DNA of 64,000 nt from an uncultured Bacteroidota bacterium (lineage in GTDB: Bacteria; Bacteroidota; Bacteroidia; B-17B0; Aurantibacillaceae): the NCBI GenBank assembly GCA_903893815.1, contig CAITNS010000015.1:1-64000 (forward strand), in the 5' to 3' direction. Positions 2,424-63,986 of this stretch are shown here, piece after piece (position 1 is the stretch's first letter; each line of letters begins with the position of its first letter). Both the position numbers and the translations under genes were made by a program. The notes under the pieces are model-generated. The model did not search any database. It worked only from the letters and a program-made list of their open reading frames with translations, and was not told the origin of the DNA.

Positions 2424-2951
2424 GTGAAAAAGCCTATAAAACAACTTCTTGACTTTCATGTCGACAAATTGACAAACTCAATTGAAAACGTTATTACTAA
2501 AGACAGTTTTAAGACTGATATTTTACCTTTAAGTCCTAAAGACTTAAAAAATATTACAAAAAAAAATGGGTGGCGTTTTAATTGGTCAGACGAATTTAAA
2601 GCCTCTGACCGAACAGCATATAAACTTGTAATTGTAAATAATGTTTACATCATTCAAGGACTTATCAGTTTAACTCCACAACACGATAACGTTTTCATGC
2701 ATTTAATTGAGACCGCTCCTTTTAATTTTGGAAAAAACAAAATGTATGAAGGTGTTCCTGGTAATCTTGTTGCTTTTGCTTGCAGACAATCATTTCTGAG
2801 AGGTACTGAAGGCTATGTTTCTTTTCGTTCAAAAACAAATTTAATTAGTCATTACACAGAGACGCTTGGGGCAATACATTATGGCGGACATTTAATGATT
2901 ATTAATACTGAAGCAGCATTAAAACTAATCGAAAAATATTTTAAACAATGA
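2424..2951 (+). CDS. GNAT-like cassette protein, copy 1 (possible toxin or acetyltransferase)
   Basis: A 175-residue protein with a GTG start, chosen because its MKK N-terminus aligns with the ATG-started second copy at 7719. The C-terminal half resembles a GNAT acetyltransferase: YEGVPGNLVAFA (acetyl-CoA loop region), then a helix, GYVSF, SKTNLISHYTETLGA and a final strand and helix. The N-terminal half carries a conserved GWRFNW motif. The gene overlaps the next tiny gene by 4 bp (ATGA), suggesting translational coupling. Copy 2 is the same length and more than half identical by eye, and a third broken copy lies at 62832-63239. GNAT toxins exist in type II toxin-antitoxin systems, but there the antitoxin is usually an upstream ribbon-helix-helix protein, unlike here. 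Function not known; the GNAT call is from pattern only. Confidence 0.7.
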   Translation: MKKPIKQLLDFHVDKLTNSIENVITKDSFKTDILPLSPKDLKNITKKNGWRFNWSDEFKASDRTAYKLVIVNNVYIIQGLISLTPQHDNVFMHLIETAPFNFGKNKMYEGVPGNLVAFACRQSFLRGTEGYVSFRSKTNLISHYTETLGAIHYGGHLMIINTEAALKLIEKYFKQ

Positions 2952-3097
2952 AAAAGAAATTAAAACTTGACGACTTGGATGTAACATTTGATCCTACTCC
3001 GTTAACTGAAGACGAAAAACATCTTATAAGTGAATTTATTCGTCAGGACAAAGAGAAGCGTAGAAAAAAGAACGAACGTAAACGTATCGCTGCTTAA
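2948..3097 (+). CDS. Tiny charged partner of GNAT-like protein, copy 1
   Basis: A 49-residue ORF overlapping the stop of the GNAT-like gene by 4 bp (ATGA). Its N-terminal half is acidic (LDDLDVTFDPTPLTEDE) and its C-terminus very basic (KEKRRKKNERKR). It is real: the second GNAT-like gene is followed by a homologous 43-residue ORF with the same layout, MKKK, LDVxF, PLTxDE, then SEF/SEY and a Lys-rich end. No known antitoxin fold is recognised. As the second gene of a two-gene cassette it could be an antitoxin, a chaperone or a regulator that binds DNA or RNA through its basic tail; this is inference. Confidence 0.7.
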   Translation: MKKKLKLDDLDVTFDPTPLTEDEKHLISEFIRQDKEKRRKKNERKRIAA

Positions 3098-3107
3098 AAT
3101 AAAAGCC

Positions 3108-3283
3108 CATCCGGTAACACACGGTTTGCCTTATTTGGGCGGACATCAAAACATTTGCAAAATCGGTAGACAATTTTTCTATTTTTCTTTGCAATTGCAT
3201 AGCAACATGGTATCTTTATTTAAACATTTCGGTAGACAACGGTTTCAAAACGGCCGAAGCAAGCCGCGAAAACGTTATGCGGC
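3108..3283 (+). repeat. attC-like cassette recombination site 2
   Basis: R''-like CCGGTAAC at 3111-3118 is the exact complement of the GTTACCGG that opens this cassette at 2350, so the two ends of the excised circle would rebuild one site. The R'-like box is GTTATGCGG at 3274-3282. The interior carries TTTGCAAAATCGGTAGAC, CTTTGCAA, GTATCTTTA and TTTCGGTAGACAACGGTTTC, shared with sites 1 and 6. An open frame running through this site from 3030 is not a gene. Confidence 0.7.
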
Positions 3284-4579: not shown

Positions 4580-4765
4580 CCGCATAACACAACCTAAATC
4601 CCATTTGGGCATTCGGCTTCGGCTTTTGCAAAAGCGGTAGCTCCCGCGAAAGACAATTATTTTCGCTTTGCAAATGTCTAATAAAATTATAGCTTTGTTA
4701 GTAATATTTCGGTAGAAACGGTTTCAAATCCCCAAACAGAAATAAACCGCGAAAACGTTAAAGGC
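4580..4765 (+). repeat. attC-like cassette recombination site 3
   Basis: R''-like CCGCATAAC at 4580-4588 is the exact complement of GTTATGCGG that opens this cassette at 3274. The R'-like box is GTTAAAGGC at 4757-4765. The interior has a stem of CTTTTGCAAAAGCGGTAG against CGCTTTGCAAATG, plus ATTTCGGTAGAAACGGTTTC as in the other long sites. Confidence 0.7.
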
Positions 4766-4774
4766 AATTAAAAT

Positions 4775-5518
4775 ATGACAAGAAAAGCCATAATGATAGG
4801 TTCACCAGGACCAAAAAATACTAAGCAGTATTTAAAGGGCGTAGATACAGATTTACATCACTTTGTAAGTTTTTTAAAATCACCTATTGGTGGTTCTTGG
4901 GAGGATAATGAAATTGCAGGACTGTTTAAATGCCCATCTGAAAATTTGATTGAATTATTCCAAAGTACTTATACTGATTTCTTACTTGTATATTTTTCCG
5001 GCCATGGTCATCAAGATTTAAAAGAAACCAATATTACAATAAACGACTCCGAATCACTTTCTGTTTCTCAACTAATTTCGATTATAAAAGCACCTAAAGC
5101 ACTAATAATTATTGATACTTGCCGAAAATACTTAGTTGAAGAATACTCAAGTTTCTCAGGCCCTGAATATTTATCCTTTGAATCAACTTTAAATCAACCA
5201 AATTCTAGTGAAAAATATATGCAAATAATTTCTGAAAGTATAGATGGTATTTCTTTAGCTTATGCTTGCTCTGTTGGTGAAATAAGTAATGATACAGAAT
5301 TAGGAGGCGATTATACTTATTCATTGCTAAAAACATCTCTGGAATGGCATGAGAACCAAAATAATCAAAGCGTATTATCTATAAATGGTGCGAATGATTT
5401 AGCTCATCAGTATTTGAAATTCAAATCAAATTTTGATCAGAATCCAAAAATTGTAACAATAAATGATAAAGAAGGAAACTTGAATTTCCCATTTGCAATA
5501 AAATTAAACAGCCTTTAA
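4775..5518 (+). CDS. Caspase-like peptidase (C14-type), cassette copy 1
   Basis: A 247-residue stand-alone caspase/metacaspase-like domain. The catalytic pair is visible: His77 in YFSGHGH and Cys116 in IIIDTCR, each after a hydrophobic beta strand. The GV-D-D helix and the SPIGGSW segment near residues 22-42 are shared with the paralogue in the next cassette (5709-6482), which has SPIGGAF. No extra domain, signal peptide or membrane segment. Bacterial caspase-like proteases act in programmed cell death and phage defence, for example cleaving gasdermins or other toxins, but no gasdermin, nucleotide cyclase or NLR partner is present. The gene starts only 10 bp into the cassette, and its TAA stop lies inside the recombination box at its end. 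Confidence 0.85.
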   Translation: MTRKAIMIGSPGPKNTKQYLKGVDTDLHHFVSFLKSPIGGSWEDNEIAGLFKCPSENLIELFQSTYTDFLLVYFSGHGHQDLKETNITINDSESLSVSQLISIIKAPKALIIIDTCRKYLVEEYSSFSGPEYLSFESTLNQPNSSEKYMQIISESIDGISLAYACSVGEISNDTELGGDYTYSLLKTSLEWHENQNNQSVLSINGANDLAHQYLKFKSNFDQNPKIVTINDKEGNLNFPFAIKLNSL

Positions 5519-5708: not shown

Positions 5709-6482
5709 ATGTTTACACGTCGTATTTTTATAGTTGGTTCTCCTGTTAATGAAGATGATGCTTTTCAAAGCGGTGTAAAGGCAGACGTTATTAATTACAA
5801 ACGTTATTTTCAATCACCGATAGGTGGTGCTTTTGATCCTGACCACGAGATTACAATTTTAAAAAATCCAAGTTGGAAACGATTAAAAGCTCATTTAATG
5901 TCTTCACCAGCCGACTTTACAATTTTCATTTATACTGGACATGGTTTCTTCGCGACTAATACAGGAAAGATAGTTTTTAATATCAGTGAGGAGGATGCTG
6001 TTGCGGCTCAGACCATTATTGATCATATCCAATCACCTAAAAAACTAATTATATCTGATGCGTGTCAGAGTTACATGGAAGGATATAATTACCTTGAGGG
6101 TATCGGCGATGTGGAACAATACATGAGTTTCCGTTCATCGGTCACAAAACCTCGTGCGCGTCAATTATTCAATCGTGCTATAATAGACAGTCCAAATGGG
6201 ACACAGCTTTTTATGTCATGTTCACGTGGACAAGAGTCAGTATTATCGCCAACTGGTAGCTTTTTTAGTTATGCTCTGCTAACTTCGTCTCAATCTTGGT
6301 CGAATACAAATTCGCATAATACTGTTTTGACTGCTCTTCAAGCTGGCAAAATGACGACTACTTTTCTTAAAAGGAAATATTCTTCAGAGCTAACAATCCA
6401 AAGATCTTCATGTTTGGTAACTAAACTAAGACCTAACTTTCCTATTGGTGTGAAATACGCTCCTCTCCAACTCCTGTATTAG
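5709..6482 (+). CDS. Caspase-like peptidase (C14-type), cassette copy 2
   Basis: A 257-residue stand-alone caspase-like domain, paralogous to the gene in the preceding cassette. Catalytic His78 lies in FIYTGHG and Cys119 in IISDACQ. RRIFIVGSP at the N-terminus, GVKAD, SPIGGAF and FMSCSRGQESV match corresponding segments of copy 1 (KAIMIGSP, GVDTD, SPIGGSW, YACSVGE). Both active-site residues are present in both copies, so neither looks dead, while the rest has diverged strongly. This points to two specificities rather than a recent duplication. It sits alone in its cassette, starting about 115 bp after the crossover. Role is unknown; defence or stress-induced proteolysis is inference from the family. 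Confidence 0.85.
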   Translation: MFTRRIFIVGSPVNEDDAFQSGVKADVINYKRYFQSPIGGAFDPDHEITILKNPSWKRLKAHLMSSPADFTIFIYTGHGFFATNTGKIVFNISEEDAVAAQTIIDHIQSPKKLIISDACQSYMEGYNYLEGIGDVEQYMSFRSSVTKPRARQLFNRAIIDSPNGTQLFMSCSRGQESVLSPTGSFFSYALLTSSQSWSNTNSHNTVLTALQAGKMTTTFLKRKYSSELTIQRSSCLVTKLRPNFPIGVKYAPLQLLY

Positions 6483-7062: not shown

Positions 7063-7490
7063 TGGAAAAAGTATTTGTAGACACAGATATAGTTCTTGAC
7101 TTATTAAGTAATCGTGAACCATTTTATTCTCACTCAGCTCAACTGTTTTCTGAAGCAGACAAAGGTAAAATAAGAATACATGTATCATCTTTAACTTTTT
7201 CCAATTTGAATTACATTTTGTCTAGGCAATATTCGGTAGATCAAGCAAGAAAAAAACTTCTTAAATTCAAAACATTAGTTACTGTTTTATCAGTTACAGA
7301 TAAAATTGTTGAACTTGCTCTATCATCAGATTTTAAAGACTTTGAAGATGGGTTACAATATTTTACAGCAATTGAAAACAATTTAAAGACACTATTGACT
7401 AGAAATTTAAAAGATTACAAGACTGCCGACATAACAGTTATGACGGCAGAGCAGTTTTTGAAAGGTAAAAAAAAATATGCCAGCCAGTAA
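7062..7490 (+). CDS. PIN-domain ribonuclease toxin (VapC-like)
   Basis: A 142-residue PIN-domain protein, predicted Mg-dependent ribonuclease and toxin of the pair with the DUF6364 antitoxin. The acidic centre is visible: Asp7 in FVDTDIVLD, Asp96 in DFEDGLQYF, and the TRNLKDY motif at 113-119 that contributes Asn115 and Asp118. These features match the DUF6364-linked PIN family, which has DFEDALQ in place of the usual VapC motif. The final TAA (7488-7490) lies inside the R'' box of the following attC-like site, as for the first caspase-like gene. Confidence 0.88.
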   Translation: MEKVFVDTDIVLDLLSNREPFYSHSAQLFSEADKGKIRIHVSSLTFSNLNYILSRQYSVDQARKKLLKFKTLVTVLSVTDKIVELALSSDFKDFEDGLQYFTAIENNLKTLLTRNLKDYKTADITVMTAEQFLKGKKKYASQ

Positions 7491-7656
7491 CACACGGTTT
7501 GCCTTATTTGGGCGGACATAAAAGCATTTGCAAAAGCGGTAGACAATTAGTTAATTTTCGCTTTGCAAAAGTCCATTAAACATTTATCTTTATTATTAGC
7601 GTTTCGGCAAACAACGGTTTCAAATAGCACTTTCGGTAGCTGCAAAACGTTAGGGG
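7481..7656 (+). repeat. attC-like cassette recombination site 6
   Basis: R''-like CCAGTAAC at 7484-7491 and R'-like GTTAGGGG at 7649-7656. The core stem is strong: TTTGCAAAAGCGGTAG against CGCTTTGCAAAAG. The opening ACACACGGTTTGCC, TTATTTGGGCGGACAT and TTTCGGCAAACAACGGTTTC nearly repeat site 2. The GTTACTGG expected at the start of the toxin-antitoxin cassette was not found, so that boundary has decayed. Confidence 0.68.
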
Positions 7657-7718: not shown

Positions 7719-8246
7719 ATGAAAAAGCAGACAAAATATCGTAATGACTTTATCATTGACCGACTTACAAATTCAATACGGAATTGTATTTCGGGCGACA
7801 GCTTACCTACAGAAGTTTTACTATTATCAAAAGAAGACCTTAAACAGGTTCAGATTAAAAACGGATGGTTATTTAATTGGCATTCAGAATTGGTCTTGCC
7901 CGACAGGGAAGTTTATAAATTGACAGTTGTAAACAATATACATATTGTTCAAGGAATAACAAGTTTAACTATAAGGCCAGACCACATTTTTATACACTTA
8001 ATAGAAAACGCAACTTTCAATAAAGGGAAGGGAAAAGTTTACGAAGGAGTTGCAGGAAATCTTGTAGCATTCGCTTGTCGACTTTCATTCCAAAGAGGTA
8101 GTGAGGGTTTTGTTTCATTTCACGCTAAGACAAAATTAATAGACCATTATGTTGAATCTCTCGGCGCATATCATTATGGCAATCATCTTATGGTTATTGA
8201 CACTGAGGCAGCATTAAAATTAGTTGACAAATATTTTAAATCATAA
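7719..8246 (+). CDS. GNAT-like cassette protein, copy 2
   Basis: A 175-residue homologue of the gene at 2424-2951, collinear over its full length with no gaps needed. Shared blocks are LTNSI (16-20), NGWxFNW (48-54), YEGVxGNLVAFACR (about 109-122), GSEGFVSF, HY-ESLGA and the final EAALKLVDKYFK. The YEGVAGNLVAFA to HYVESLGA segment is the GNAT-like part. It starts with ATG just behind a perfect palindrome and is followed after 4 bp by the second small partner gene. Cassette boundaries are GTTAGGGG at 7649 and ACCCCTA at 8395. Same uncertainty of function as copy 1. Confidence 0.7.
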   Translation: MKKQTKYRNDFIIDRLTNSIRNCISGDSLPTEVLLLSKEDLKQVQIKNGWLFNWHSELVLPDREVYKLTVVNNIHIVQGITSLTIRPDHIFIHLIENATFNKGKGKVYEGVAGNLVAFACRLSFQRGSEGFVSFHAKTKLIDHYVESLGAYHYGNHLMVIDTEAALKLVDKYFKS

Positions 8247-8250
8247 TCAC

Positions 8251-8382
8251 ATGAAAAAGAAAACCCAAGAACTTGATGTAGACTTTATACAAAGCAAACC
8301 ATTGACTAAAGACGAGGAGCAAAAATTAAGTGAATATATCAAAAAACTTAAAGAGAAAACTGCGAATAAAAAAGCTGCCTAG
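8251..8382 (+). CDS. Tiny charged partner of GNAT-like protein, copy 2
   Basis: A 43-residue ORF starting 4 bp after the GNAT-like gene. It matches the 49-residue ORF at 2948-3097 in layout: MKKK start, LDVDF, a PLTKDE motif, SEYIKKLKEK and a Lys/Ala-rich end (NKKAA against KRIAA). Conservation of so short an ORF in the same place behind both copies is good evidence that it is translated. Function unknown. Confidence 0.68.
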   Translation: MKKKTQELDVDFIQSKPLTKDEEQKLSEYIKKLKEKTANKKAA

Positions 8383-61030: not shown

Positions 61031-61867
61031 TTATTGTTTTATGTTTTCCTTCACAAATACCTCAATCTTTTTCCAAACTTCTTCGTTATTCATAATCGAA
61101 TTATGATCTTCATTGACTTCTAAAGCATCTGTCTTACCTTTCCATGCCTCTTTTAATTTATATGCATGATGTTTTGGAATGATTTGATCGTTTGCAGAAA
61201 TAAGCGCTAGCATAGGACTAGAAATGTTTGGCGCATATGTATCCGATTCAAAACGATGTTTGATCAATAAACTGATTGGAACAAATGGATATTTTTCAAA
61301 TGCCACATCAATCATGTTTTCGTAAGGTGTAATTAAAACCGTAGCATTGGTTTTGCGTTGCGATGATAAGTAAGTAGCTACACCAGTTCCAATGCTTCTA
61401 CCAATTACAATAATGTTATTAGCATCTATCTTAGGATTTGTAATTAATTCATCATACACTTCCAAAGCATCGCTAAACATTGTTTTTTCTGAAATAGTAC
61501 CCTGACTTAATCCAAAACTTCTGTAATTAATTAATACCATTATTGTATTTGGGAAATAATTTTTCTTTTCCGAAAGGTGTGAAACCTCTTCGGCATTACC
61601 ACCAAAATAAAGTACTAATGGTAATTTTTCTTTAATGGTATCTTTAGAAATATAACCACAAGTTTTGTTGCCATCATTCATTACAAAAGTTAGCGTATCA
61701 AACTCCGGCGCTGCTTCTAAAATTTTTGAAACATCCTCTAATGTTTTTGGTTTTGGATGAAATAATAAATCATCTTGATTTAAATATAACAGAGTGCAAA
61801 TACCAATATACATTATCGCTAAAACAATAACAGAAATTTTAAAGAATTTGATGAGTTTTTTATTCAT
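61031..61867 (-). CDS. Membrane-anchored alpha/beta hydrolase
   Basis: A 278-residue hydrolase with one N-terminal transmembrane helix (FFKISVIVLAIMYIGICTLLYL) and the BEM46/ABHD13-like pattern: QDDLLFHPKP, LVLYFGGNAEEV, INYRSFGLSQG, IVIGRSIGTG with nucleophile Ser, ANDQIIPKHHAY with Asp, and NEDHNSIM with His. Start ATG 61867 is chosen; a longer frame from 61918 would translate a dispersed palindrome into 17 extra residues. Substrate unknown. Confidence 0.87.
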   Translation of the reverse strand: MNKKLIKFFKISVIVLAIMYIGICTLLYLNQDDLLFHPKPKTLEDVSKILEAAPEFDTLTFVMNDGNKTCGYISKDTIKEKLPLVLYFGGNAEEVSHLSEKKNYFPNTIMVLINYRSFGLSQGTISEKTMFSDALEVYDELITNPKIDANNIIVIGRSIGTGVATYLSSQRKTNATVLITPYENMIDVAFEKYPFVPISLLIKHRFESDTYAPNISSPMLALISANDQIIPKHHAYKLKEAWKGKTDALEVNEDHNSIMNNEEVWKKIEVFVKENIKQ

Positions 61868-61900
61868 ACTTAAAGATAGGAAAAATGCCTGTAAATAAAA

Positions 61901-61933
61901 ACACCTATCAGGTTTCAAAAACCTGACAGGTGT
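61901..61933. repeat. Dispersed palindrome (ACACCTGTCAG type), copy 2
   Basis: ACACCTATCAGG (61901-61912) pairs with CCTGACAGGTGT (61922-61933) with one mismatch, around TTTCAAAAA. Same element as at 38227-38259. It lies between the toxin gene end and the hydrolase start. Confidence 0.65.
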
Positions 61934-61977
61934 TTATGAATAAATTATTTCGCATAAGTCGTAGTTCGTACTTAACT

Positions 61978-62289
61978 TTATTTACTTATTTTCTTCATTT
62001 TTTGTGGATTTTGTCTACAATCGAAAACATCTGTTATGTATACATTACTATCAATTACTCGATAAATTATTTTATAATTTCCTTCGACTAAATAACGATG
62101 TTCTTGTTTTAACTCAATCAAGTTTTCTTCTATTTGCCCAATAAATGGTTGTTTGATCAAGGGTTTAGTAGCATTGAAAATGGATTTTCTTATTTTATCA
62201 GCTACTGTTTCATTTGCGACCATGCGATAGTATATGTAAATACTTTTAAGTTCAGAAATAGCTAGATTGGTCCAAATAATTTGTCCCAT
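61978..62289 (-). CDS. RelE/ParE-superfamily toxin
   Basis: A 103-residue toxin-like protein: WTNLAISELKSIYIYY at the N-terminal helix hairpin, then EENLIELKQEHRYLVEGNYKIIYRVIDSNVYITDVFDCRQNP. The R-Y-L...YKIIYRV and DVFDCRQNP strand pattern is typical of ParE/RelE fold toxins. It follows its antitoxin gene by 5 bp. Gyrase poisoning or mRNA cleavage cannot be told apart from sequence here. Confidence 0.85.
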   Translation of the reverse strand: MGQIIWTNLAISELKSIYIYYRMVANETVADKIRKSIFNATKPLIKQPFIGQIEENLIELKQEHRYLVEGNYKIIYRVIDSNVYITDVFDCRQNPQKMKKISK

Positions 62290-62294
62290 AAAAA

Positions 62295-62540
62295 TTACCA
62301 GTTTTTTGATTGAATCTCTAACTCTTTTTGAGTTAACACATGCCCTTTTTTAATTTGCTTATTCGAAAATTCAGCTCTTTCAATTAGGTCTTCTTTTGTA
62401 AATACAATATCGTTTGGTTTAACTGATTTGAAGCTTTTATGAATTGTAGCTTCTACTTTTGTAAATATTTTTTCATCCTGAATCCCTAATAGGTATTCTA
62501 TAAGGCTCATTTTTCGCAATTGAAGATTTGAAGATTTCAT
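62295..62540 (-). CDS. Antitoxin of the RelE/ParE pair
   Basis: An 81-residue protein read from ATG 62540 (MKSSNLQLRKMSLIEYLLGI); a longer frame from 62561 is less likely. The KMSLIEYLLGIQDEKIFTKVE helix and the ERAEFSNKQIKKGHVLTQKELE tail (SxxxIxxGxVxxxxEL pattern) are typical of the small antitoxins paired with such toxins in Bacteroidota. Cotranscribed with the toxin. Confidence 0.78.
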   Translation of the reverse strand: MKSSNLQLRKMSLIEYLLGIQDEKIFTKVEATIHKSFKSVKPNDIVFTKEDLIERAEFSNKQIKKGHVLTQKELEIQSKNW

Positions 62541-62596
62541 TTTTAAAAATTCTTTAATCAAAGGTACAAAAAATGACTGTAAATAAAAAACACTTG

Positions 62597-62835
62597 TTAT
62601 CGTTTTATAAATTTATCAGAAGTTATAATCGTATTGTCTTGTTCAATACAAATAAAGTAAATACCTTGTGTTAAATCATTTAATAAAAAGGATTGAAAAC
62701 TGCCTTCAAATGCTTGTTTTAGTATTTTTTCGCCAATCGAATTATATATTAAAAATACGAAATTTCCGGGTTTCTTAGTTTGCACTTTTATCTCGTCTGA
62801 TAATGGATTAGGCCATACTAATACGTTTGAGCTAT
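62597..62835 (-). pseudogene. Fragment of a secreted protein: type IX sorting domain (T9SS type A)
   Basis: About 79 codons matching only the C-terminal sorting domain of type IX secretion substrates: SSNVLVWPNPLSDEIKV (PNP motif), FLIYNSIGEKIL, LNDLTQGIYFICIE and the basic end ITSDKFIKR. Whatever protein carried it is missing upstream; instead the DNA runs directly into a truncated GNAT-like pseudogene. The only start codon in the frame is a TTG at 62851 inside that pseudogene, so this is a remnant and not a gene. Confidence 0.8.
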
Positions 62836-63239
62836 TTTTGATAATGTTCAATTAAAACTGTCTTACTGTCAAATGCTACGTAACCCTCATAACCTCTGTC
62901 AAACGAAACTTTACAAGCGTAAGCAACTAAATTACCTGGAACTCCAAGATATATTTTATGTTTGCCAAGATTGAATTTTGAACTTTCAACAAGATGCATA
63001 AAAATATGGTCGTCTTTGTCCTCAATACTTAAAAGTCCTTGAATAATTGTCGGATTATTTGTAGTTGTTAATTTAAAGATTTGCTTAGATTTATCTTTGA
63101 ATTCGGATTTCTAATTGAATTGCCAGTCCTTGTTTTTAATAGTCTTAAAGTCCTTATTGGTAATACGTGTAATTTCAGTATCGAAAACTTCTCCTGTTAA
63201 AGTGTTTTCAATAGAATTTGTCAGTATTGATTTTTTATC
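62832..63239 (-). pseudogene. GNAT-like cassette protein, third copy, inactivated
   Basis: No long open frame exists here, but one minus-strand frame reads LTNSIEN, KDWQFN, then TAG (63113-63111), then KSEFKDK, FKLTTTNN, IIQGLLSI, DHIFMHLVES, GVPGNLVAYACKVSF, RGYEGYVAF, SKTVLIEHYQK, then TAG (62834-62832). This is collinear with the proteins at 2424 and 7719. The internal TAG stands where both have the Trp of FNW, a TGG-to-TAG change. The first dozen residues are unclear and the last 35 or so are missing at a junction with the sorting-domain fragment. No small partner gene remains. Confidence 0.85.
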
Positions 63240-63260: not shown

Positions 63261-63986
63261 TTATTTTGATATTAAATCATCGAATAATTCAGGAAAAGTA
63301 TGATATCCTGTGAGTAAAAATGAATCACTGAATATAATTAAATAAAATAATAATGTTATTATTGAAAATACTGATATTAGAATTACTATCTCTGACGATA
63401 ATGTAAAATAATATTTATTTTCTGTAAAAATTTTAGTTGGATAAGTTTTTTTTAAGATTATCATTGAAATTAAAACTATTGTAGGGAACATAAGGCAGAA
63501 AATTAAATGACGTAACACAGTAATGTCGGCAAATCTAAATGAAGCATCGTGGTAATTATCACCTATTAAAGATACAAATAGGCAGACCAATAAAAGCAAT
63601 TTAAGTATATTCTCTAAAATAATAAAAATTAATTGAGGTATATTTTTAACATTATTTCTTGAATTAACTAATAGAAAGACACCATATGCTAATAAAAGCA
63701 ACCCAAGCGTTATAAAGAAGGGCAATGAGTCAATGTGTTTTTTTATTAATTCATTTCGTTTCTTTAAAATTATCAACGATTGGTTTTCTGTATAAAATGG
63801 TGTATGATTATATTTAAGCTGAACTTTCTTTAATTCTTTGGCGCTATCAAATGTCTTTTGTGCCCAATCCCGATTTTGATATTCAGCACCGCATACAAAA
63901 AATATAACGATACTTACTAAAATTATAAAAATACTTCTGTTAAAAAATTTCATTTCACTTTTTTGATTGTCATACGTGTCACTCAT
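63261..63986 (-). CDS. Multi-span membrane protein of unknown function
   Basis: A 241-residue protein with about five hydrophobic helices (near 17-33, 88-107, 117-140, 158-178 and 195-220) and a periplasmic or cytoplasmic loop between the first two (residues 35-85). No family is recognised. Its stop lies a few bases before the GNAT-like pseudogene, on the same strand, which suggests the two arrived together. ATG at 63986, 14 bp from the window edge. Confidence 0.6.
   Translation of the reverse strand: MSDTYDNQKSEMKFFNRSIFIILVSIVIFFVCGAEYQNRDWAQKTFDSAKELKKVQLKYNHTPFYTENQSLIILKKRNELIKKHIDSLPFFITLGLLLLAYGVFLLVNSRNNVKNIPQLIFIILENILKLLLLVCLFVSLIGDNYHDASFRFADITVLRHLIFCLMFPTIVLISMIILKKTYPTKIFTENKYYFTLSSEIVILISVFSIITLLFYLIIFSDSFLLTGYHTFPELFDDLISK

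What the first reader, a model, noticed from the sequence alone, without database searches (positions are those of the whole stretch)
62832..63239. Hidden third copy of the GNAT-like gene, killed by a Trp-to-stop change and truncated
Found by reading a stretch without a long ORF. One continuous frame aligns with both cassette copies, interrupted only by TAG exactly where both have TGG for the Trp of FNW. It lies more than 54 kb from the array and without attC-like sites, showing that the family also spreads or persists outside the array. Loss of function here may mean that this module is costly once its partner is lost.
Basis: seen in the sequence. Interest (0 to 1): 0.65.

Follow-up and report, generated by a model that had tools for sequence, protein, structure and literature searches.

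The report
Broken copy of toxin-like gene pair
This is a recently killed and doubly cut copy of the larger gene of a small, mobile, two-gene unit common in Bacteroidota that looks like a toxin with its antidote; the copy itself is dead, but the pattern of its relatives, where the larger gene breaks and the small one stays, makes the toxin idea testable.

Summary
Window 62835-63224 (minus strand) matches codons 16-145 of the array's 175-residue gene (tblastn E 3e-42), with TAG at the Trp of FNW (63111-63113). Both ends are cut, no partner gene is detectable, and a type IX secretion tail fragment abuts the 3' cut. Of 34 columns conserved in at least 95% of 169 intact relatives, only that Trp is changed, so inactivation looks recent. 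It is not a copy of the array genes (48-54% identity) but a separate lineage in a strain-specific stretch.

The family is a mobile two-gene module: a GNAT-fold protein (closest by VIA-align to TacT3, a tRNA-acetylating toxin) plus a roughly 55-residue partner. All 167 assessable intact close-family copies have the partner; 20 of 25 assessable broken ones still have it. In 87 genomes, 16 of 50 partners lack an intact GNAT gene beside them, while 0 of 34 intact close-family GNAT genes lack a partner. Copies sit in integron-like cassettes or between long direct repeats of host sequence, as restriction-modification systems do. Toxicity is inferred, not shown.

The parts
62835..63224 (-). remnant of the GNAT-like gene, codons 16-145 of 175, one frame
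   Evidence: tblastn E 3e-42; profile match over positions 16-158, the last dozen or so past the 3' cut; alignment
63111..63113 (-). TAG in place of the Trp54 codon of FNW
   Evidence: sequence; Trp54 is invariant in the 64-row alignment and at 1.0 in the 79-row alignment; note that one of the two search patterns that fetched these rows contains this Trp
62832..62834 (-). second TAG, at the 3' cut
   Evidence: sequence
62597..62851 (-). type IX secretion C-terminal sorting domain fragment abutting the 3' cut; the last 30 codons of the GNAT-like gene and the partner are missing here
   Evidence: Por_Secre_tail E 1.1e-10, TIGR04183 E 1.3e-11; no partner match in L011 (best E 0.53)
63261..63986 (-). 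241-aa hydrophobic ORF of unknown function directly upstream of the 5' cut
   Evidence: ORF; no relative in the other 86 family genomes
61978..62289 (-). ParE-like toxin gene
   Evidence: PF05016 E 1.4e-11
62295..62561 (-). small ORF next to parE, probable antitoxin by position
   Evidence: ORF; no family above cut-off
61031..61918 (-). hydrolase gene, last syntenic gene; similarity to sister genomes ends at 61935
   Evidence: synteny
2424..2951 (+). intact GNAT-like gene of the array, copy 1
2948..3097 (+). its partner gene (49 aa), overlapping by 4 bp
7719..8246 (+). intact GNAT-like gene of the array, copy 2
8251..8382 (+). its partner gene (43 aa)
3107..3283 (+). attC-like repeat following copy 1; similar repeats at 2185-2353, 4658-4760 and 7480-7624
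   Evidence: 19 places in the genome, the query included

Best explanation
The feature is a dead remnant of the larger gene of a mobile two-gene module. The 175-residue protein has the GNAT acetyltransferase fold and most likely acts as an intracellular toxin (by analogy, acetylating aminoacyl-tRNA with acetyl-CoA). The roughly 55-residue protein encoded just downstream most likely binds and neutralises it. Such a pair is kept as a pair; when it decays, the toxin gene is lost first or together with the antidote, because losing only the antidote would poison the cell. This copy belongs to a lineage of its own, not to the array's, lies in a strain-specific stretch at the end of the contig, and was inactivated recently by rearrangements that cut both ends and removed the partner, plus a Trp54-to-stop change. 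SHOWN: homology, stop, truncations, missing partner, strain-specific location, partner co-occurrence, asymmetric decay. PREDICTED: GNAT fold. INFERRED: toxicity, tRNA target, neutralisation by the partner, order of the lesions.
For: Homology and stop. Recent loss: of 34 columns conserved in at least 95% of 169 intact copies and within the remnant's span, only the Trp is changed; at 90%, 2 of 42. Separate lineage: 54% and 48% to the array copies, up to 63% to other genera. Island: none of the 4 sister loci (of 12 given) that continue past the hydrolase matches the stretch right of 61935. Fold: model pLDDT 86, pTM 0.83; VIA-align's best rows are TacT3 at Z 12.9 (rmsd 2.6, 139 aligned) and 12.5, then other GNATs at 11.6 and below, AtaT and AtaT2 at 10.9-11.1. 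Pairing: partner in 166 of 167 assessable intact close-family copies by profile, and in the remaining one (L337) by eye. Asymmetry: partner kept in 20 of 25 assessable broken copies; in 87 genomes 16 of 50 partners lack an intact GNAT gene beside them against 0 of 34 intact close-family GNAT genes lacking a partner, Fisher P 1e-4; dropping three weak or partial partners 13 of 47, P 4e-4, and dropping also two tandem partners 11 of 45, P 0.002. The same domain is the C-terminal part of a MuF head protein of Fusobacterium phage phiPaco, followed by an overlapping 58-aa ORF, the layout of a MuF toxin with its immunity gene.
Against: No activity was measured. GNAT is a common fold; TacT3 leads the next family by only about one Z unit, and Foldseek ranks another acetyltransferase (CBU0801, E 6.6e-6) above TacT3 (E 3.7e-5). 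The window's partners and the three distant ones scanned match no Pfam family, and the window's two match no NCBIfam model above cut-off; none has a recognised DNA-binding domain; gene order is toxin first. The longer gene would break first by chance about three times out of four; chance alone gives no partner-only lesion in 20 with probability 0.004, but loci are related, so this is approximate. More distant relatives do without this partner: 14 of 15 low-scoring copies have none, and the one that has (L343) is probably a broken close copy that my score threshold set apart; the 9 distant relatives in the 87 genomes have none and are left out of the 34. Some of the 11 partners without a GNAT gene are weak, partial or interrupted (G041:C10, G036:C323, G080:C40).
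Confidence: 0.68

Rival explanations
1. The module is not toxic: the GNAT-fold protein is an ordinary acetyltransferase (for example resistance or metabolism) and the small protein a stabiliser or activator; copies decay because the function is often useless.
For: GNAT is common; many non-toxin GNATs score Z 10-11.6 and Foldseek's first match is not a known toxin; 14 of 15 low-scoring relatives have no detectable partner; a 2009 survey judged GNAT-RHH and GNAT-Xre pairs more likely to be resistance operons (PMC2701414, passages).
Against: A stabiliser should be lost as freely as the enzyme; instead partners without an intact GNAT gene are common and intact close-family GNAT genes without a partner were not seen. 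Fusion to a MuF head protein suits a toxin better.
Confidence: 0.2
2. One reading: the partner was lost first, the GNAT gene then became costly and was killed by the Trp-to-stop change.
For: The remnant has no partner and its coding sequence is otherwise well conserved.
Against: No intact close-family GNAT gene without a partner is seen among 167; 20 of 25 assessable broken copies keep the partner, so GNAT-first loss is the rule. The 3' cut removes the end of the GNAT gene and the partner together, which a single event explains.
Confidence: 0.1
3. The stop is a base-call or assembly error and the gene is otherwise alive.
For: Draft genome near a contig end; no reads available.
Against: Codons 1-15 and 146-175 are missing as well, there is no start codon before the homology, and the partner is absent.
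Confidence: 0.02

Closest known systems
GNAT toxin-antitoxin systems (TacAT, AtaRT, KacAT; aminoacyl-tRNA acetylating toxins)
   Same: GNAT fold with TacT3 as VIA-align's best match; two-gene operon; intact toxin gene not seen without its partner in the close family; up to several copies per genome
   Different: No sequence match in the PDB set; partner about 55 aa with no Pfam match, encoded downstream, not the DUF1778 (RHH) or DUF4065 antitoxins reported for GNAT toxins (PMC9177977, passages); activity unknown
MuF polymorphic toxins with immunity proteins
   Same: A homologous domain is the C-terminal part of a MuF (PF04233) protein in Fusobacterium phage phiPaco, followed by a small overlapping ORF
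   Different: The two window proteins have no MuF domain and the Bacteroidota copies are read as single-domain ORFs of about 175 residues; no GNAT or acetyltransferase term occurs in the held text of PMC3482391 (first 300,000 characters) or in PMC12226406 (term search)
Restriction-modification systems inserted with long target duplication
   Same: Addiction-like module flanked by variable direct repeats (30-333 bp in the two samples), some of which copy host gene ends; single-copy empty site in sister genomes for the C59 copy
   Different: Not an RM system; the passages seen tie the pattern to RM systems (PMC3874152, PMC3031569)
Toxin-antitoxin cassettes of integrons (super-integrons)
   Same: Window copies lie between attC-like repeats; PMC2654758 (passages) describes whole TA operons as cassettes
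   Different: No integrase over the IntI cut-off in this genome; for Bacteroidetes the passages seen of PMC9024848 name one complete integron, in Salinibacter ruber

Membership tests
GNAT acetyltransferase fold | GNAT fold over most of the protein | tested here: met
   Model pLDDT 86; 627 of 999 chains aligned score Z 8 or more, led by GNATs
GNAT acetyltransferase fold | acetyl-CoA loop (Q/R-x-x-G-x-G/A) | tested here: inconclusive
   Y-x-G-V-[PAG]-G-N-L conserved, with Pro often at the second Gly position; motif recalled, not tested structurally
GNAT toxin-antitoxin (TacAT/AtaRT) | catalytic Tyr | tested here: inconclusive
   Tyr144 invariant in the 64 rows at the place expected from the recalled motif; residue-level structural alignment not available
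GNAT toxin-antitoxin (TacAT/AtaRT) | RHH (DUF1778) or DUF4065 antitoxin | tested here: not met
   The window's two partners and three distant ones match no Pfam family; the other partners were not scanned
toxin-antitoxin module in general | intact toxin gene always with antitoxin; antitoxin may stand alone | tested here: met
   0 of 34 intact close-family GNAT genes lack a partner; 16 of 50 partners lack an intact GNAT gene beside them
toxin-antitoxin module in general | growth inhibition relieved by the partner | not testable with these tools
   needs expression in a laboratory strain
MuF polymorphic toxin | MuF domain fused to toxin, immunity gene downstream | tested here: not met
   Met only by the distant phiPaco relative; window proteins have no MuF domain
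integron cassette (the remnant) | gene directly followed by attC | tested here: not met
   No convincing attC-like similarity at the remnant; degenerate site 0.8 kb upstream inconclusive
insertion with long target duplication (the remnant) | direct repeat on both sides | tested here: not met
   No direct repeat better than E 0.2 between the two flanks
insertion with long target duplication (the C59 copy) | flanking copy of host sequence and a single-copy empty site in relatives | tested here: met
   80-bp copy of the mrp 3' end on each side; 3 of 17 sister loci align on both sides over 1 kb and show a single copy and no module

The most novel reading that the evidence does not exclude
An unnamed, Bacteroidota-wide family of selfish GNAT toxin and mini-antitoxin modules, about 0.7 kb long, which carry no recombinase yet move in two ways, as integron-like cassettes and by insertion with long target duplication like restriction-modification systems, and which leave behind orphan antitoxins and dead toxins such as this one. 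The same toxin domain is borrowed by a phage MuF head protein.
Probability: 0.45. Interest if true: 0.7.

Novelty: new variant of a known kind. Interest (0 to 1): 0.45.

Why it matters
The remnant alone is an ordinary pseudogene. If the pair is a toxin and antidote, it gives Bacteroidota a large TA family with a new small antitoxin, and its repeats offer a clean system for asking how addiction modules without a recombinase insert with long target duplications.

Tried and rejected
Recent duplicate of the array gene: rejected (54% and 48% identity). Close intact orthologue: not found in 395 phylum genomes (best 63%); the 241-aa neighbour has no relative in 86 other family genomes and the island is absent from the 4 informative sister loci of 12 given. 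Insertion repeat at the remnant: none. attC at the remnant: none convincing by similarity; DNA folding of the upstream candidate inconclusive, and folding also failed to separate two of four array repeats from shuffles, so it was dropped as a test. Rfam gave nothing relevant. PADLOC and PHROGs gave no usable match. Phages and plasmids: 1 phage and 8 plasmid records, all under 60% identity; viral contigs 2 loci. A search by order returned the same 87 genomes as by family. Folding of the two proteins as one chain was considered and left out, because the tool gives no contacts.

Limits of the counts: the 79 loci are best hits, so biased to intact copies; the 'broken' status was set by a script (stop, frame change or missing end), and some may be assembly errors; 'close family' was set by a score threshold, which put 15 low-scoring copies apart (one of them, L343, probably a broken close copy that keeps its partner); the two direct-repeat samples overlap in part; at the looser limit of E 1e-3 inverted repeats appear too, in 5 of 63 modules and 3 of 600 controls; repeats include both attC-like arrays and host gene-end copies, and of the 14 loci inspected for gene ends only about 6 show one clearly. 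Rows dropped: 2 intact and 2 broken copies with too little sequence downstream; 2 partner hits (G037 at a contig end, G047:C23 in a 766-codon frame); 9 distant relatives in the 87 genomes.

Full report
WHAT IS THERE. On the minus strand, 62835-63224 reads as codons 16-145 of the 175-residue gene that occurs twice in the window's array. tblastn in the own genome gives E 3e-42 and 53% identity. TAG at 63111-63113 stands where the family has Trp54 of FNW, a residue invariant in the 64-row alignment (one of the two patterns that fetched those rows contains it). Codons 1-15 and 146-175 are missing, there is no ATG, GTG or TTG in frame between the upstream stop and the homology, and a second TAG lies at the 3' cut. 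The 3' neighbour is a type IX secretion sorting-domain fragment (62597-62851; E 1.1e-10) whose domain begins where the homology ends. No partner gene is detectable within contig positions 60000-65198 (best E 0.53). So it is a real pseudogene, truncated at both ends.

AGE AND ORIGIN. Within the remnant's span, 34 columns are conserved in at least 95% of 169 intact copies; the stop is the only change (at 90%, 2 of 42). With an earlier, smaller set and a 97% threshold, 45 of 50 columns inside the span were kept, the others being the stop and four mild substitutions. The gene was therefore probably under selection until recently. Its identity is 54%, 48%, 56% and 54% to the other four copies of the genome (2424, 7719, C59, C55) and up to 63% to genes of other genera: a lineage of its own, not a copy of the cassettes. 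Left of it, the order ABC transporter, DedA, hydrolase is shared with sister genomes; DedA matched in 11 of 12 sister loci and the hydrolase in 5, of which 4 continue beyond it, and none of those matches anything right of 61935. The remnant thus sits in a strain-specific stretch with a ParE-like toxin gene and its neighbour and a 241-aa ORF not found elsewhere in the family.

30 of 87 genomes of the own family and 78 of 395 sampled genomes of the class have a match, distant ones included. Neither Pfam nor NCBIfam has a model whose cut-off the window's GNAT-like or partner proteins reach. AlphaFold2 with 64 sequences gives pLDDT 86, pTM 0.83. Foldseek and VIA-align return GNATs: Foldseek ranks the acetyltransferase CBU0801 first (E 6.6e-6) and TacT3 third (E 3.7e-5); VIA-align ranks TacT3, a tRNA-acetylating toxin, first with Z 12.9, rmsd 2.6 over 139 residues, then general GNATs at Z 11.6 and below. 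Tyr144 is invariant, at the place where the recalled GNAT motif puts the catalytic Tyr. A short charged protein, mostly 43-78 residues, is encoded directly downstream: of 166 intact pairs, 24 overlap by 4 bp and 130 lie 1-19 bp apart.

WHY TOXIN AND ANTIDOTE. Of 196 unique close-family copies, 169 are intact and 27 broken. Among the 167 intact copies with at least 250 bp downstream, 166 have the partner by profile and the last one (L337) has it on inspection; one short call (L269) is a full 47-residue frame. Among 25 broken copies with room, this finding included, 20 keep an open partner gene. One of them (L304) carries its stop at the same Trp54 as this remnant and keeps its partner. A direct search for partners in 87 genomes gave 52 hits: 34 beside intact GNAT genes, 5 beside broken ones, 11 without one of their own, 1 at a contig end and 1 probable chance hit. 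Of the 11, two are second partners behind a complete module (G080:C41, G051:C207) and three are weak, partial or interrupted (G041:C10, G036:C323, G080:C40). Two of the 11 have what may be the last 20 or so codons of a GNAT gene in front (E 0.09-0.28, weak). Thus 16 of 50 partners lack an intact GNAT gene beside them, and 0 of 34 intact close-family GNAT genes lack a partner (Fisher P 1e-4; 13 of 47, P 4e-4, and 11 of 45, P 0.002, under the two stricter counts). Length alone would spare the partner in all of 20 single-gene lesions with probability 0.004 (related loci make these figures approximate). Against this, more distant relatives do without the partner: 14 of 15 low-scoring copies and the 9 in the 87 genomes. 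Finally, the domain forms the C-terminal part of a MuF head protein of Fusobacterium phage phiPaco (PF04233 at residues 201-307; family domain after about residue 350), with a 58-residue ORF overlapping its end. Distant plasmid relatives in Paenibacillus polymyxa and Treponema succinifaciens likewise have a small gene next, though the small ORFs of all three do not match the partner profile convincingly.

HOW IT MOVES. In the window the module sits between attC-like repeats that recur at 19 places in the genome, query included; no integrase passes the IntI cut-off. A 98% identical module lies in different flanks, with attC-like repeats nearby, in a genome of the same genus (L153). Elsewhere, long direct repeats flank the module: 23 of 63 loci against 21 of 600 control intervals at E 1e-5, inverted repeats 0 and 0 at that limit but 5 of 63 and 3 of 600 at E 1e-3; in a second, partly overlapping sample 29 of 89 against 7 of 377. 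Some repeats are attC-like and recur in arrays; others copy the end of a host gene (mrp on C59, and ORF ends in L035, L064, L071 and L019); for several two-copy loci no gene end was seen. On C59, 775 bp holding the module lie between two copies of about 80 bp of the mrp 3' end; 3 of 17 sister loci align on both sides over 1 kb and have one copy and no module. This is the 'long and variable target duplication' described for restriction-modification systems (PMC3874152 and PMC3031569, passages). A search of the held library for 'long target duplication' with 'toxin-antitoxin' gave 5 papers; I saw passages of three and the listing of two, and none of the passages reports it for a GNAT pair.

The sequence reading was right in almost every detail. 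The cause offered is the reverse of what the family shows. The remark that the family persists outside the array is right, through the intact copies on C59 and C55 and not through this remnant alone.

STATUS OF STEPS. Shown: homology, lesions, pairing, asymmetry, repeats, empty site. Predicted: fold. Inferred: toxicity, acetylation of aminoacyl-tRNA, neutralisation, and the order of events in this copy.

Noticed in passing
contig C16 of the same genome, 243-23576 (L182, L183): Eight attC-like repeats on the minus strand in a row, followed by two ORFs that match the integrase profile below its cut-off (538 aa on the minus strand, 332 aa divergent on the plus strand); this may be an integron-like system with an unusual integrase.
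   Followed up: partly
L009 16939-17226 (contig C59): A third, 288-bp fragment of the mrp 3' end with its downstream flank lies about 7 kb from the module insertion, suggesting another event at the same target.
   Followed up: no
L351 1445-3192 (Fusobacterium phage phiPaco): Gene annotated as minor head protein carries this GNAT-like domain at its C-terminus and is followed by a small overlapping ORF.
   Followed up: partly
G038:C102 6494-6797 (L387), G051:C207 26772-27088 (L228), G080:C41 3839-4229 (L153): Tandem partner genes, with one GNAT gene or none, as if antidotes accumulate.
   Followed up: partly
L019 3006-4823: Three copies of a 74-bp repeat, the last at the 5' end of a 104-aa ORF, spaced about 870 bp apart, one spacing holding the module: possible repeated insertion at one target.
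   Followed up: no
window 4775-5518 and 5709-6482: Two neighbouring array ORFs of similar beginning (MTRKAIMIGSPGPKN, MFTRRIFIVGSPVNED) with a caspase-like look, by eye and recall only.
   Followed up: no
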